Assembly (NCBI GenBank): GCA_021773835.1
Contig: JAJFJQ010000028.1
Coordinates: forward strand, 124,001-188,000
DNA: 64,000 nt
Source of the DNA: Gammaproteobacteria bacterium
GTDB lineage: Bacteria > Pseudomonadota > Gammaproteobacteria > Ga0077536
Direction of reading: 5' to 3'
How positions within the stretch are numbered: the stretch's first letter is position 1; every line of letters starts with the position of its first letter. The notes below the pieces were generated by a model. That model saw only the letters and a list, made by a program, of their open reading frames with translations. It was not told the DNA's origin and searched no databases. This document shows, one piece after another, positions 13,142 to 20,552 of the stretch. The translations under genes and the position numbers were made by a program.

Positions 13142-13819
13142 CTACGGCGTGGTCTCGCCCGCTGGTTCGTAGTCAATCGTTTCAGGCGCGACGGCACCGC
13201 CGGAAATTATGAAGCTCATCGCTTCTTCAATCGACCAATCCAATGGAACGAGATCCGCAACCGGTACGATTTCGAGATAGCCGGAGGTTGGATTCGGTGT
13301 GGTTGGAACATACACGGCAGCTAAGGGGCGGCCGGCGGGGTCGCTCATCACGCGAGTAACAAGCCCGACTGTCTTCATTGAGTCACTCGGAAAGTTGATC
13401 AGGACAACCCGCTGTGTCCCATCCGGTTTCGTTTGCAGGGCACCAATCAATGTTTTGATCGAACCGTAGACACTATGAACCAAAGGAATTCGCGCAATAA
13501 TTCGATCGAGGGCTGCGATGATCTGCCGACCAATGACTAAGGTTACCAACCAACCAAGTAAACAAAGACTTAGAAGAATCACGAGCATTGCTAGCGTCGG
13601 CTTGAACCAAGACAAAGAAAACAGTTCGACGATACGTGGTGCGTATGGGCTTATCGTAAAAAGGATTTTATCGACTAAGGGTGCACCGAGTTCTGCTAAT
13701 TGTTTGCCAAGAAACTGAAATGCAGCCCAGGTGATCCATATAGGTATTACTGTGATCACACCGGTGATTAGGTACCGCTGTAAGCGCGATCCGGCGCCAC
13801 GTAAAACGCGATTTTCCAT
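13142..13819 (-). CDS. DUF502 family inner-membrane protein
   Basis: A 225-residue membrane protein of the DUF502 family, widespread in Gram-negative bacteria with no settled function. The N-terminal half has two membrane segments, ITGVITVIPIWITWAAFQFL and LAMLVILLSLCLLGWLVTLV. The conserved middle RIPLVHSVYGSIKTL precedes a cytosolic or periplasmic C-terminal domain with VYVPTTPNPTSGYLE. ATG at 13819 is chosen because it starts the family's usual N-terminus. It is transcribed away from the secreted peptidase gene on the other strand. Confidence 0.85.
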   Translation of the reverse strand: MENRVLRGAGSRLQRYLITGVITVIPIWITWAAFQFLGKQLAELGAPLVDKILFTISPYAPRIVELFSLSWFKPTLAMLVILLSLCLLGWLVTLVIGRQIIAALDRIIARIPLVHSVYGSIKTLIGALQTKPDGTQRVVLINFPSDSMKTVGLVTRVMSDPAGRPLAAVYVPTTPNPTSGYLEIVPVADLVPLDWSIEEAMSFIISGGAVAPETIDYEPAGETTP

Positions 13820-13944
13820 TGATCTGCTCCTATGGGTCTGTTGACGCTCTCGCGGCCATTTTGACTTCAATGCGTGCACAAGCTAGAACAGTGCCACTGT
13901 TCCTACATTACGCACCACTAGGCGAATTAATCTACACGATAGCA

Positions 13945-15429
13945 ATGGGATCACTATTAGTCGGCAAAACGCTGCTTTCTACAAGCGCTATTTTTGTATT
14001 GGCAACGGTTGCATTAATTGGGGTTAGCGTTAGCGCCAATGCAGCTGTCACTGTGGCCCATACGTTGCATTACGACATTGAGATTGACGAAAGCTTGCGG
14101 CGCCTGGACGTTGACCTATGTGTCCGCGAAAACCCATTTCCAGAGCGTCTCGTAGCTTCTGCCGAGCTTTCAAGCAATCTTAATAATATCCGCGGGAAAC
14201 TGACAGACGGCTCATGGGTAAAACTAAAGATCAAGGATCGTATAGTTACGGTTGAAGAGCGTATCGTCGAATGCGTCAGTTACACAGTTAGCGTTCGTGT
14301 ACGTGGTGGCTCGCGACGTTCGGGATTCGAGACACATAACGACGCTGTTGTCATGGCTCTGGAGCGGCTCCTCTTACGACCACAGTTGCGCGAACGTTGG
14401 GGACAGACGCGACTTCACTTTCGCGCGCCGCCAAAAGTTCAGGTCTCCGCGCCCGGATCGATCGTCAGCGACGAGAACGGGAAACGCTCGTATGAACTGT
14501 TAGATCGACCAATCGATTGGGATGGAAGCTTTGCATTTGGTCGACTGACGCAAAGCTTGATCGAGGTAGGCGGGGCAAAAGTGAGGCTGTCCATTGTCGG
14601 CCGTGTGAATGCGACTACGACCAGTGTATTGCATGATTGGTTGGTAGCCGGAATCGAAGCGGTTAAGACCGTATATGGCGACTTTCCCGTTGAGCGTGTA
14701 CAGGTGCTGGTATTCCCGCTTGGTCCCAGTGACGACCCGGTACCATGGGGCGAAGTTAAACGCGGCGGCGGTGACGCCGTACACCTCTACGTCGACGGGA
14801 CCCGCCGAGTGGACGAATTGAACGCGAACTGGGTTCTAGCGCATGAACTTAGCCACCTACTCCATCCCTACATAAGTGGTGCGGACGCTTGGTTGCCGGA
14901 AGGTATTGCAAGTTATTATCAAAACGTCGTTCGCGCTAGAAGTGCCTTGCTCGACGAGCACAGCGCGTGGAATAAACTCGATGCGGGCTTTAAACGTGGC
15001 CGAGCGCAATTCGGGGGTGCACGTACACTCGCTTCCGATACTCGCGACATGATGCGGGAATACCAATACATGCGGGTCTATTGGAGCGGCGCTGCGATCG
15101 CCTTGATTGGCGATGTAGAACTCCGTCATCGTTCCGGCGGCGTCATGTCCTTAGACACGGTGATGGCGGAATTATCGCGCTGCTGCCTACCGTCGGAGTA
15201 TCAATGGAGCGCTGCTCAAATAATGGCGAAAATCGATGACATCACTGGGTACAATATCTTCGTACCACTTTATGATCGCTACGTGATGCAGCCAAAATTT
15301 CCCGAGCTTAAAGAAACCTATCGGCGTTTGGGGCTAAAATCCAACGCCGAGGGCATACACTTTTCCAATGATCCTGTCGCCACTAAACTACGTAAGGGCA
15401 TCATGGGTCGCCGCGCGACCACACGCTGA
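13945..15429 (+). CDS. Secreted gluzincin-type metallopeptidase-like protein
   Basis: A protein of about 494 residues with an N-terminal signal peptide (LSTSAIFVLATVALIG, cleavage likely after SANA), so it works in the periplasm or outside. The zinc motif AHELSHLLHP followed by WLPEGIASYY gives HExxH with a downstream glutamate, as in the peptidase MA clan. The first 250 residues are beta-rich and not recognised. ATG 13945 is preferred since it places the signal peptide at the N-terminus; the frame is open further upstream from a TTG at 13819 and an ATG at 13870. Peptidase activity and targets are inferred from the motif only. Confidence 0.7.
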   Translation: MGSLLVGKTLLSTSAIFVLATVALIGVSVSANAAVTVAHTLHYDIEIDESLRRLDVDLCVRENPFPERLVASAELSSNLNNIRGKLTDGSWVKLKIKDRIVTVEERIVECVSYTVSVRVRGGSRRSGFETHNDAVVMALERLLLRPQLRERWGQTRLHFRAPPKVQVSAPGSIVSDENGKRSYELLDRPIDWDGSFAFGRLTQSLIEVGGAKVRLSIVGRVNATTTSVLHDWLVAGIEAVKTVYGDFPVERVQVLVFPLGPSDDPVPWGEVKRGGGDAVHLYVDGTRRVDELNANWVLAHELSHLLHPYISGADAWLPEGIASYYQNVVRARSALLDEHSAWNKLDAGFKRGRAQFGGARTLASDTRDMMREYQYMRVYWSGAAIALIGDVELRHRSGGVMSLDTVMAELSRCCLPSEYQWSAAQIMAKIDDITGYNIFVPLYDRYVMQPKFPELKETYRRLGLKSNAEGIHFSNDPVATKLRKGIMGRRATTR

Positions 15430-15582: not shown

Positions 15583-16638
15583 ATGGGAAAATTTCCCAAA
15601 TATATTAAGCCTGGGACCAATTCTCTTCGCATCCTTATCGCTGGCTGGTTGACGCTTTTTGCGACAAGCAGCGGGGCAGATTCCGGTCCGTCGGCTATAG
15701 AGCGCAGAGATTACGGTGCCGCTGCCGCGCAATTCACCGTTCGCGCCCAGCGCAACGACCCAATTGCGCAAAACAACCTCGGAGCGCTCTACCTTAAAGG
15801 CCGCGGCGTCCCGCAAAACTACGAATTAGCGCGATCGTGGTTCGAAAAAGCCGCCAGCAATAAACTCGCCGGCGCGATGTTCAACCTAGGCATGATCTAT
15901 CTGCGCGGATACGGCGTCGAAGCAAACGAAGAGCAAGCAACAATATGGTTCCAACGAAGCGCCGAGGCCGGCGACCGCGAAGGTCAATTCTTTCTTGGCG
16001 TGCACAAATACTACGGGCGAGGTACTGAGCGCGACATCGACGTCGCGGCCCAGTGGTTTCGTCGAGCGGCCGAGCAAAATCTTGGGTCCGCACAATTCAA
16101 CCTTGCAATGATGCACCTGCATGGAGAATCCGTCCGGCAGGACGAAGACGCTGCGATCACCCTGCTCGAGCAAGCGGCGGAGCAAGGCCATGAATCCGCG
16201 GAATTGACGCTTGGGCGATTGCATCTCGCGAATCCGGACGACCCGCTGCGCATGGCAGCGGCCGTTTCGTTATTTCAGCGATTGGCGGAAGACGGTAGTC
16301 CCGACGCACAAGTCACGCTCGGTTTGCTCTACACATTTGGGCAGGGCGTGGACCAAGACTATGACGAAGGTCGATTTTGGTTAACGCTGGCGTCCAACCA
16401 ACGATCTGGGTCGGCAGCACTTAACCTTGGCAACATCTACGTAGAAGGTATTGGGGTACCGCGGGATCGTATCCGTGCTTATGCTTGGTACATAGTGAGC
16501 GCGGAGCACGGAGACCCCGCCGGTAGCTTGAATCGAGATCAACTCGCCGAAGCTCTCAACGAGACTGAACTTGAGCAGGGGCGTGTCCTTGCCGTCGAAC
16601 TCGCCAAGCCAATGCCAGAGCCTGTACCGAAATCATGA
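15583..16638 (+). CDS. Secreted Sel1-like (TPR-related) repeat protein
   Basis: A 351-residue protein made of about seven Sel1-like repeats after an N-terminal signal or anchor segment (SLRILIAGWLTLFATSSG). Repeat signatures such as AQNNLGALYLKGRGV, AMFNLGMIYLRGYGV, GQFFLGVHKYYGRGT and AALNLGNIYVEGIGV recur about every 36 residues. Sel1 repeats form a helical scaffold for protein contacts and are common in envelope and signalling proteins. No enzymatic motif is seen. It stands alone between two intergenic regions, so its partner is unknown. Confidence 0.85.
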   Translation: MGKFPKYIKPGTNSLRILIAGWLTLFATSSGADSGPSAIERRDYGAAAAQFTVRAQRNDPIAQNNLGALYLKGRGVPQNYELARSWFEKAASNKLAGAMFNLGMIYLRGYGVEANEEQATIWFQRSAEAGDREGQFFLGVHKYYGRGTERDIDVAAQWFRRAAEQNLGSAQFNLAMMHLHGESVRQDEDAAITLLEQAAEQGHESAELTLGRLHLANPDDPLRMAAAVSLFQRLAEDGSPDAQVTLGLLYTFGQGVDQDYDEGRFWLTLASNQRSGSAALNLGNIYVEGIGVPRDRIRAYAWYIVSAEHGDPAGSLNRDQLAEALNETELEQGRVLAVELAKPMPEPVPKS

Positions 16639-16791: not shown

Positions 16792-16832
16792 GCTAAACAC
16801 ATGGCACCGCCACTATGCTAAGGAATATTTAG

Positions 16833-17132
16833 ATGATCATTACCCGCTACATCAGCAGCACGGCCAAATCATTGCTTCAGGAGATCGGCCAATGGCGACT
16901 CGTGCTCATCATCATCTTAATGTCGCTATGCATGGCGACACCGGTGTGCGCCGCAGAAGACTCCGTTACAACTCAAGATAGCAACGCCGCAAACGCCGAA
17001 TCTAAAAATAATGAGGACAAACAATGTACATGGGCATGCCTCAAATGGGACAAAATTTGCAACGTCGACCCGCGCGGCGTGTACAAGTGTCGTAGGATGT
17101 GCGCCAATTTTGGCGAAGTTTGTGAAGAGTAA
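16833..17132 (+). CDS. Secreted six-cysteine peptide with duplicated cysteine spacing
   Basis: A 99-residue small protein I do not recognise. Residues 22-40 are a strongly hydrophobic signal segment ending TPVCA, with signal peptidase I cleavage likely just after it. A polar linker follows, then a compact tail with Cys at 65, 69, 76, 86, 90 and 97. The spacing is C-x3-C-x6-C, nine residues, and again C-x3-C-x6-C, so the tail is an internal duplication (CTWACLKWDKIC and CRRMCANFGEVC). Six cysteines in 33 residues suggests three disulfides in the periplasm or outside, or metal binding. A good ribosome site AAGGA lies eight bases before the ATG. Its stop overlaps the likely start of the nucleotidase gene. 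Confidence 0.65.
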   Translation: MIITRYISSTAKSLLQEIGQWRLVLIIILMSLCMATPVCAAEDSVTTQDSNAANAESKNNEDKQCTWACLKWDKICNVDPRGVYKCRRMCANFGEVCEE

Positions 17133-17826
17133 AGATCTGTGTATTGCGGCACTGGTCGCAAACGAAATCGAAACAGTTATTCTCGACATGGACGGTACCC
17201 TGCTTGATCTCCATTTTGATCAAGAGGTATGGAATCGACTGCTGCCGGAACGATACGCAATTGCTTCCGGTTGCACGATAGAGTCGGCACAAACCGAAGT
17301 GGCCGCACGGATGTGTAGCTCGAAGCGTACGCTTGCTTGGTATCGCCTCGACCACTGGTATGACATCCTCGGAATCGACCTCGCGGCTCTAGAGGTGGAA
17401 TTCTCGCACCTTGTCCAGCCACGACCCGGCGCGATCGAGCTCTTAGAAGTACTGGCGGCAAGCGAGCTTCGCGTGATCCTTGCAACAAATGCTGAACCTC
17501 GAAGCATGCAGCGGAAATTCGACATCACCGGAATCGATCGTTACTTTGATGCGATCGGTTGTTCGCACCACTACGGAACCTGTAAGGAAGATCCCATATT
17601 CTGGCCCGCATTCACCAGCGAATTAGCGATCGATCCTTCTACAGCACTTTTTATCGACGACGACCATAACGTTTTGCACACCGCGATAGCATTCGGGATC
17701 GCTTACGTATATGGCGTACGGCGCCCGAGCTCCCGAGGGCCAGAACTCACGAGCGATAATTTTCATTGCTTGGAAGAGTTTGACGAGTTGCGAATGGCTG
17801 TGTCGGAGACTTTGGTCGCACGCTAA
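17122..17826 (+). CDS. yrfG: HAD-family GMP/IMP nucleotidase, YrfG-like
   Basis: A 234-residue HAD hydrolase expected to dephosphorylate GMP and IMP. Motif I is LDMDGTLLDL with the nucleophile and acid-base Asp pair, followed by VWNRLLPERYA as in YrfG; motif II is LATNAE, and the C-terminal FIDDDHNVL carries the Mg-binding acids. No ATG is available at the right place. A GTG at 17122 gives the usual length and overlaps the preceding peptide gene by 11 bases, so coupling is likely; TTG 17110 is an alternative. It is convergent with trmB and the two stop codons share the bases 17823-17826. Confidence 0.82.
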   Translation: MKSKDLCIAALVANEIETVILDMDGTLLDLHFDQEVWNRLLPERYAIASGCTIESAQTEVAARMCSSKRTLAWYRLDHWYDILGIDLAALEVEFSHLVQPRPGAIELLEVLAASELRVILATNAEPRSMQRKFDITGIDRYFDAIGCSHHYGTCKEDPIFWPAFTSELAIDPSTALFIDDDHNVLHTAIAFGIAYVYGVRRPSSRGPELTSDNFHCLEEFDELRMAVSETLVAR

Positions 17827-18497
17827 GCCCTGGCTAATATGAATTCGTGAACCGCTGATCCCGCAGCCTTCGCCTTGCGTTCGAATTTCGTGACCGGTCG
17901 AAATGTTACTCGTGGTGCTACACGCCCAGGCCCAGACAAGTTAATCCAACCTGGGGAGTCTGCGATCGTTTCGTTGATCGAGAGCGCGTACGACTCGGAG
18001 TCAGTTGCGATGAATAAGCGACCGTGTCGATGGAGTCTCAACGCAAGCAATTCGAAGAACTTTCGTTGTAGCAAGCGCCGTTTATGATGACGTTTTTTCG
18101 GCCACGGATCCGGGAAGAAAACCATAACTTGATCGAATGCTTCCTTTACAAACGGCGCTAGCATCTCGCAAACATCTTGGTTGGACACTCGAAGATTTTT
18201 TAGCGCTGCAGCTTCTGCCAAGTTTAAGAGGCGGCCTAATCCGGGGCGATAGACTTCTACTGCAACGAAATTCTCGCTGGCACGATTTCTCGCTAATTCA
18301 ATGATACAGCTACCGTCGCCGGAACCGATTTCAAGCGTGCACGATGCGCGACGCCCAAACGCCGCCGCAAGTTCAGCGCTCGACGTGCAATCCGGTAAGG
18401 CGTAGGTGTCCCAAGTGTATTCCAGCGCTTCGCGCTGTGCCCGCGTGATGCGGCTGTCGCGACGCACGAAACTTCGGATTGGCGCATTTTCTGTCAT
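17823..18497 (-). CDS. trmB: tRNA (guanine-N7-)-methyltransferase TrmB
   Basis: A 224-residue SAM-dependent enzyme that makes m7G at position 46 of tRNA. The SAM-binding motif LEIGSGDGSCIIELA lies near residue 56, and the diagnostic FFPDPWPKKRHHKRRL motif near residue 125 carries the catalytic Asp and tRNA-binding residues. The C-terminal stretch VTFRPVTKFERKAKAAG is also typical. Length is normal. TrmB is cytoplasmic. Its TAG stop interlocks with the TAA of the nucleotidase gene on the other strand, leaving no space for a terminator. Confidence 0.95.
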   Translation of the reverse strand: MTENAPIRSFVRRDSRITRAQREALEYTWDTYALPDCTSSAELAAAFGRRASCTLEIGSGDGSCIIELARNRASENFVAVEVYRPGLGRLLNLAEAAALKNLRVSNQDVCEMLAPFVKEAFDQVMVFFPDPWPKKRHHKRRLLQRKFFELLALRLHRHGRLFIATDSESYALSINETIADSPGWINLSGPGRVAPRVTFRPVTKFERKAKAAGSAVHEFILARA

Positions 18498-19886: not shown

Positions 19887-20453
19887 GCCGTTATGTCCGC
19901 GCCAGTGCTTTTTGCACCGGAGGAGGTTTTTCCTTAGTTAATTGCTCTAAGCCGCTGAGATTAGAGTCATTATAGACGAGGTGATAGCGATATCGTCACA
20001 TTTTATTTGTTTTTCAACCGACGGAATCCGTCCAGCGCGTATCATACCGCACCTATACGGCTTAGGTGGGCAAAAATGTCGATGCAGAGAGGATCGATTT
20101 CAGCCGCAATATTGCGCCAGGATGATTGGCGGATCACGTGTTTACGGCCCATAAGTGCAGGACCGTCGAAGCCTCAGCCGTCGGCGTTCACCGTTCATTC
20201 GGAAGGTCCAAACTTCATTCTTCCGTCTTGATTGGCACTTTTTCCGACTCAACAACGACCATGGAGAACAACATCAGACCCTTTTAACTCGATCGGCCAA
20301 AGGCTTAGAATTAGGGACTACGGATCGGCGACAGCTGAATAGGATCGAGATTTGATCCGTCTTTGTATACAACCCAAACATTGCGCAATCCGCCACAATG
20401 CCGGTACTAATGAGGTTCGGACTTTTGCAGCCGCGCGGCGGCGAGAAAAAAAC
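19887..20453. other. 567-base stretch without a convincing gene
   Basis: Several short open frames exist but none has a plausible start, length or composition. Two palindromes stand out: CGCAATATTGCG at 20105-20116 and ATTGCGCAAT at 20380-20389. The second overlaps TTGCGC (20381-20386), which with TACTAA at 20405-20410 (spacing 18) is a possible promoter for the tRNA-Gly gene. The start of the stretch should hold the promoter of the response regulator gene, but I could not define it. No known small RNA or riboswitch was recognised. Confidence 0.5.
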
Positions 20454-20527
20454 GCGGGTGTAGTTCAATGGTAGAACATCAGCTTCCCAAGCTGAATACG
20501 TGGGTTCGATTCCCATCACCCGCTCCA
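20454..20527 (+). tRNA. tRNA-Gly, anticodon CCC
   Basis: A 74-base cloverleaf with acceptor GCGGGTG/CACCCGC, discriminator T and encoded CCA. The anticodon loop TTCCCAA gives CCC at 20486-20488, reading GGG, and the T-arm contains GGTTCGATTCC. It matches the E. coli glyU pattern closely. A leader of about 35 bases follows a possible TTGCGC/TACTAA promoter. The HD hydrolase gene starts 26 bases downstream on the same strand. Confidence 0.96.
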
Positions 20528-20552
20528 CCAAAAAAATAGACAACAGGCCAAC

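What the first reader, a model, noticed from the sequence alone, without database searches (positions are those of the whole stretch)
16833..17132. Secreted peptide with a duplicated C-x3-C-x6-C motif
The mature part carries six cysteines at 65, 69, 76, 86, 90, 97, an exact repeat of the same spacing separated by nine residues. Size, signal segment and good ribosome site support a real gene. Possible roles include a disulfide-rich toxin or bacteriocin-like peptide, metal carrier or envelope factor. I know no family with this pattern.
Basis: partly seen in the sequence, partly recalled or inferred. Interest (0 to 1): 0.6.

Follow-up and report, generated by a model that had tools for sequence, protein, structure and literature searches.

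The report
Conserved secreted six-cysteine hairpin miniprotein family
The small secreted protein with two matching three-cysteine modules is real and belongs to an old, apparently undescribed family found in several groups of Gammaproteobacteria; it looks like a resident cell-envelope protein locked by disulfide bonds rather than a toxin, but what it binds is unknown.

Summary
The ORF at 16833-17132 is real and the cysteine pattern is as described. Profile searches gave 61 distinct homologues, plus one found later, in six families of Gammaproteobacteria. All keep six cysteines in two modules, C-x3-C-x2-W-x3-C and C-x3-C-x2-[FYL]-x3-C; the second aromatic position deviates once. Only the linker between modules varies (9-23 residues). 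dN/dS in the core is low. Beyond the cysteines the two modules resemble each other more than all but 0.04% of column permutations, so the duplication is probably genuine.

The gene sits at two fixed chromosomal places: between a Sel1-repeat gene and a GMP/IMP-nucleotidase gene (window's side), or just upstream of tRNA-Leu-tig-clpP-clpX-lon (46 of 53 genomes in one order carry the gene). It was not found in phage or plasmid collections, and no Pfam, NCBIfam, PHROGs, PADLOC or PDB family matches convincingly. Signal peptides are general; a few members are lipoproteins. This argues against a bacteriocin and for a periplasmic or outer-membrane-tethered, disulfide-locked, two-fold hairpin domain. 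AlphaFold2 gives a confident beta-hairpin twice, whereas hydrophobic periodicity and disulfide geometry suit a helical hairpin, so the fold is unresolved. Binding partner and function remain unknown.

The parts
16820..16825 (+). ribosome-binding site AAGGAA
   Evidence: sequence
16833..17132 (+). gene for the six-cysteine secreted protein (99 aa)
   Evidence: homologues; dN/dS
16833..16952 (+). signal peptide (residues 1-40; cleavage after VCA inferred)
   Evidence: hydrophobic segment LVLIIILMSLCM; cleavage by AxA rule, inferred
16953..17024 (+). low-complexity, poorly conserved tether (residues 41-64)
   Evidence: alignment; AF2 pLDDT about 48 over the first 20 mature residues
17025..17060 (+). 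module 1: CTWACLKWDKIC (residues 65-76)
17061..17087 (+). turn NVDPRGVYK (residues 77-85); length variable in the family (9-23)
17088..17123 (+). module 2: CRRMCANFGEVC (residues 86-97)
15583..16638 (+). upstream neighbour: Sel1-repeat protein with an export-like N-terminus, conserved in position in the window's family
   Evidence: Pfam Sel1 E 9.5e-61; synteny
17122..17826 (+). downstream neighbour: GMP/IMP nucleotidase-like HAD hydrolase (yrfG-like); likely GTG start overlaps the end of the six-cysteine gene by 11 nt
   Evidence: PRK14988 E 1.6e-49 (below its curated cut-off); position
17823..18497 (-). trmB, tRNA (guanosine(46)-N7)-methyltransferase, conserved next neighbour
   Evidence: TIGR00091 above cut-off; synteny

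Best explanation
It is a resident envelope miniprotein. Sec exports it; in most members a signal peptidase I type signal is removed, in a few the protein is lipid-anchored. The mature protein is a flexible tether ending in a 33-47 residue domain of two homologous three-cysteine modules. In the periplasm DsbA-type oxidation joins the modules face to face as an antiparallel, two-fold symmetric hairpin, most simply by three disulfides, C65-C97, C69-C90 and C76-C86. This rigid, protease-resistant head carries a basic strip (KCRRxC) and an invariant Trp, and most likely acts as a binding or adaptor element for an envelope partner. Shown: gene, family, conservation, export-type N-termini, synteny, purifying selection, DsbA-family genes in 8 of 8 genomes tested. 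Inferred: the disulfides and their pairing, the hairpin's role, and the partner.
For: 61/61 homologues keep all six Cys and the first-module Trp. The modules are mutually similar outside Cys (0.04% of permutations as good). All but one of the 61 ORFs have a clear hydrophobic N-terminal stretch (the exception, L104, has masked bases there) and 4 plus L124 have a lipobox. dN/dS is low. Fixed loci: Sel1-gene-yrfG-trmB in the window's family, without the Sel1 gene nearby in f133 and without yrfG in f120; upstream of tRNA-Leu(tag)-tig-clpP-clpX-lon in f119 and f140. 46/53 genomes in the order of G153. DsbA-family genes in 8/8 genomes. AF2 gives a two-element antiparallel hairpin from first to last Cys, core pLDDT about 94-96, in both subfamilies. 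A two-fold helical hairpin can satisfy all three proposed disulfides at once (CB-CB 3.9 A).
Against: No structure, proteomics or phenotype. AF2 gives strands while hydrophobic periodicity is helical (module 2 p=0.0002); in an ideal beta-ladder C69 and C90 would face opposite sides, leaving two free thiols or needing bulges or an intermolecular bond. The gene is absent from many relatives with the locus otherwise intact, so it is dispensable there. Homologues that lost cysteines would be missed by a cysteine-weighted profile.
Confidence: 0.6

Rival explanations
1. Thiolate metal site: the two C-x3-C motifs and the third cysteines bind Cu(I), Zn or Fe in the periplasm as a small carrier or buffer.
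For: C-x3-C is the copper motif of the Csp (DUF326) storage proteins, from general knowledge; 2 of 57 members match DUF326 weakly, best E 0.00036.
Against: The other 55 members do not match DUF326; no Csp chain among PDB matches to E 10; no copper gene seen beside it; no conserved His or Met; an even, all-or-none set of six Cys in an oxidising compartment suits disulfides.
Confidence: 0.13
2. Redox-active thiol-disulfide shuttle or disulfide sensor: part of the cysteines cycle between oxidised and reduced forms, relaying electrons in the periplasm.
For: Invariant C-x3-C pairs; in a flat beta-hairpin model C69 and C90 are left without a partner, next to F93 and W72 (register inferred). DsbA-family genes present.
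Against: No C-x-x-C motif, no thioredoxin fold, no Dsb gene in the conserved neighbourhood; in one locus (L057) a DUF4124-glutaredoxin gene lies beside it but this is not general.
Confidence: 0.12
3. Secreted toxin or bacteriocin-like peptide acting on other cells.
For: Small, disulfide-rich, exported; C-x3-C...C-x3-C recalls alpha-hairpinin antimicrobial peptides; sub-threshold Conotoxin match (E 0.0041, below cut-off).
Against: Purifying rather than diversifying selection, fixed housekeeping loci, near-universal in one order, no adjacent immunity or exporter gene, some members lipoproteins, no phage or plasmid hits.
Confidence: 0.05
4. Spurious ORF or non-functional coding region.
For: Short ORF overlapping the yrfG-like reading frame at its end.
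Against: Codon-position-3 bias of changes and low dN/dS, 61 homologues, in unrelated DNA contexts.
Confidence: 0.01

Closest known systems
Plant alpha-hairpinins (4C and 6C Cys motifs; PMC11591084)
   Same: Two C-x3-C motifs separated by a 4-20 residue linker in a disulfide-locked hairpin; 6C forms add one Cys per arm.
   Different: The 6C form is C-x3-C-x3-C, here C-x3-C-x6-C; plant defence peptides cut from precursors; here bacterial, signal-peptide or lipoprotein, tethered. AF2 predicts strands here. No significant sequence match (2m6a, which I recall to be an alpha-hairpinin, E 3.1).
Mitochondrial twin CX3C proteins (small Tims; Tim10 is CX3C-X16-CX3C, PMC12114033)
   Same: The outer spacing of the window protein is CX3C-x16-CX3C and it would be oxidised in the equivalent compartment.
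   Different: A further Cys in each arm, much shorter arms than the Tim helices (general knowledge), no sequence match; likely convergence.
DUF326 / Csp copper storage proteins
   Same: Cys-x3-Cys motifs, small, often exported.
   Different: Csp are four-helix bundles with many Cys (general knowledge); only 2 of 57 members match, weakly.
Beta-hairpin disulfide-ladder peptides (protegrin, theta-defensins)
   Same: If AF2 is right, an antiparallel two-stranded hairpin with cross-strand disulfides.
   Different: Different spacing, origin and length; recalled from memory, not tested beyond the PDB sequence search.

Membership tests
alpha-hairpinin | 4C motif CX3C-X4-20-CX3C without intervening Cys | tested here: not met
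   C76 lies inside the linker stretch; every homologue the same
alpha-hairpinin | 6C motif CX3CX3C-X4-20-CX3CX3C | tested here: not met
   Spacing is CX3CX6C in 61/61
alpha-hairpinin | helix-loop-helix fold with disulfides between arms | tested here: inconclusive
   AF2: strands; hydrophobic periodicity: helix; geometry allows it
twin CX3C (small Tim) | two CX3C motifs 14-16 residues apart in paired helices | tested here: inconclusive
   CX3C-x16-CX3C in the window protein, longer in others; fold unresolved
twin CX3C (small Tim) | sequence relationship to Tim proteins | tested here: inconclusive
   No Tim chain in the PDB profile search to E 10 and no Tim family in the Pfam table; absence of a hit does not exclude remote homology
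DUF326 / Csp copper storage | match to PF03860 | tested here: inconclusive
   2 of 57 members, best E 0.00036, window member none
DUF326 / Csp copper storage | Cu(I) binding in a four-helix bundle | not testable with these tools
   needs metal titration and a structure; a 33-residue core is unlikely to form a four-helix bundle alone
bacteriocin / secreted toxin | mobile or variable locus with immunity or export genes | tested here: not met
   fixed housekeeping loci, no phage or plasmid matches
bacteriocin / secreted toxin | killing activity | not testable with these tools
   needs assay

The most novel reading that the evidence does not exclude
A previously undescribed gammaproteobacterial envelope domain: two tandem copies of a 12-residue C-x3-C-x2-aromatic-x3-C module that lock into a two-fold symmetric, triple-disulfide hairpin with a new cysteine framework, serving as a tethered envelope adaptor or assembly factor, near-universal in one order and vertically kept at a fixed locus.
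Probability: 0.45. Interest if true: 0.6.

Novelty: new variant of a known kind. Interest (0 to 1): 0.45.

Why it matters
A conserved gene, near-universal in a whole bacterial order, without an entry in the family libraries searched is a real gap in annotation. The 33-residue head would be a very small two-fold duplicated disulfide domain in bacteria; it makes a clean test case for periplasmic oxidative folding and for structure prediction of Cys-rich miniproteins (AlphaFold2 and sequence periodicity disagree), and its inter-module loop already varies in nature from 9 to 23 residues.

Tried and rejected
Single-sequence scan of genome contigs found nothing; the family alignment was needed. Pfam, NCBIfam, PHROGs, PADLOC, PDB sequence and Foldseek/VIA searches gave no convincing relative. 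Weak class- and phylum-sample hits in L031-L037, L058, L068, L100 and L121 lack the motif and were rejected as chance. Alignment A1 contains a guessed start for the L010 member and is not used for any claim; A5 had mistyped residues and was replaced by A6, checked letter for letter. Literature searches found no description of the family, but the library is incomplete. A sigma-70 scan of the region found no promoter-like site, so separate transcription from the Sel1 gene is not settled.

Full report
The observation. The ORF at 16833-17132 encodes 99 residues with cysteines at 65, 69, 76, 86, 90 and 97. A good ribosome site precedes it. The exact repeat of gaps is rare by chance (0.33% of random placements), and the pattern is confirmed by relatives.

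The family. A protein search of 96 relatives found homologues in nine other genomes of the same family, all with the same six cysteines. Profiles made from these reached five other families of the class and 46 of 53 genomes in the order of G153. A sample of 398 genomes of the phylum gave one further hit, which lacks the motif, so the family appears confined to some Gammaproteobacteria as far as sampled (that the class is Gammaproteobacteria comes from the record titles). In total 61 distinct sequences keep both C-x3-C-x6-C modules; the linker has 9 (19 sequences), 10 (24), 12, 13, 16 or 23 residues. Trp at module position 8 is invariant in the first module, while Phe, Tyr or Leu sits there in 60 of 61 second modules. 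L124 is a further member with a 15-residue Gly/Ser/Thr-rich linker and a lipobox. In 54 of 61 the last cysteine is the next-to-last residue. Because profiles weight cysteines, cysteine-less relatives would be missed.

Is the duplication real? Comparing the nine non-cysteine columns of the two modules in 30 non-redundant cores, only 0.04% of column permutations score as well as the true register (0.9% in the window's subfamily alone). Consensus forms are CMTVCDRWGEDC and CRRVCKSFTEEC in one subfamily, CYWGCLRWGKQC and CQRRCEKFGEIC in the other. Convergence of two helices or strands under the same constraint is not strictly excluded.

Coding and selection. Differences fall mainly at third codon positions and dN/dS is about 0.05-0.25 in pairs where dS can be estimated.

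Genomic place. In the window's family the order Sel1-repeat gene, six-cysteine gene, yrfG-like HAD gene, trmB is kept. In f133 the neighbours downstream are the same, and in f120 (L051) trmB follows without the yrfG-like gene. In the window the likely GTG start of the HAD gene (17122) overlaps the cysteine gene by 11 nt (inferred). In most family relatives that lack the gene, the Sel1 and yrfG-like genes adjoin directly and trmB follows; G007 has no Sel1 gene there. In the other subfamily the gene lies on the same strand, usually 140-560 bp (up to about 940) before tig, followed by clpP, clpX and lon, with tRNA-Leu(tag) in the gap in the eight loci checked. A response regulator-cyclase fusion lies upstream in many. 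Nothing mobile is seen; phage and plasmid collections have no match.

Export. All but one of the 61 ORFs show a clear hydrophobic N-terminal stretch (L104 has masked bases there), with 12-72 residues between that stretch and the first conserved cysteine in the others; 4 of 61, and L124, have a lipobox. DsbA-family genes exist in all eight genomes tested. An exported protein with six invariant cysteines in an oxidising compartment most simply forms three disulfides (inference).

Structure. AF2 on alignments of 57 and 54 rows predicts two 14-residue strands exactly spanning first to last cysteine, core pLDDT about 94-96, with a low-confidence tether (pTM 0.42-0.47). The register, inferred from the strand limits, brings C65 opposite C97 and C76 opposite C86. 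The turn sequences DPRG and NPxTG suit a beta-hairpin (general knowledge). Against this, the spacing Cys, Cys, aromatic, Cys = 4-3-4 places all four on one helix face, and hydrophobicity in both modules has a 95-100 degree period (module 2 p=0.0002; module 1 p about 0.03). Simple helix/strand propensities do not decide. An idealised two-fold helical hairpin satisfies all three disulfides with CB-CB 3.9 A; in a flat beta-ladder C69 and C90 would lie on opposite faces. Both models agree on an antiparallel two-fold hairpin and on the outer and inner pairings; the secondary structure is unresolved. Fold searches gave nothing meaningful.

Function. Distribution, selection and context speak for a resident envelope component and against a bacteriocin. 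A disulfide-locked binding head on a tether is the most economical reading (0.6); metal binding (0.13) and redox relay (0.12) remain. The partner is unknown; neither neighbourhood gives a clear functional clue, since the HAD nucleotidase, TrmB, Tig, Clp and Lon are cytoplasmic.

Relation to known kinds. The motif resembles alpha-hairpinins (CX3C-X4-20-CX3C, or CX3CX3C arms; PMC11591084) and twin CX3C small Tims (Tim10 CX3C-X16-CX3C; PMC12114033), but the arm spacing differs and no sequence relationship was detected, so it is not filed as a member of either. No library used here holds this family. The literature library searched is partial, so 'undescribed' is provisional.

Noticed in passing
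window 20274-20543 (-): An 89-aa ORF (VERVMGIEPTYSAWEADVLPLNYTR...) lies antisense over tRNA-Gly(ccc) at 20454-20527; a translated tRNA, not a gene.
   Followed up: partly
window 13819-15429 (+): M61-like protein with an export-like N-terminus (Pfam Peptidase_M61 E 0.00044, just under cut-off), seen beside the Sel1 gene in the same-genus genome but not in the other relatives examined.
   Followed up: no
L056:8431-9516 (-), L057:6701-7753, L054:10660-11682: A response regulator fused to an adenylate/guanylate cyclase domain lies near the six-cysteine gene in many tig-linked loci.
   Followed up: partly
L069-L115, about 10-20 residues before the first Cys: The tig-linked subfamily has a short conserved tether motif [SD]G.L.[LI]P (e.g. 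DGELLLPDDYN, SGTLVLP) absent from the window's subfamily; possible docking or processing site.
   Followed up: no
L057:8128-8625 (-): DUF4124-glutaredoxin fusion protein convergent to the six-cysteine gene, related to one at L055:6369-7040.
   Followed up: no
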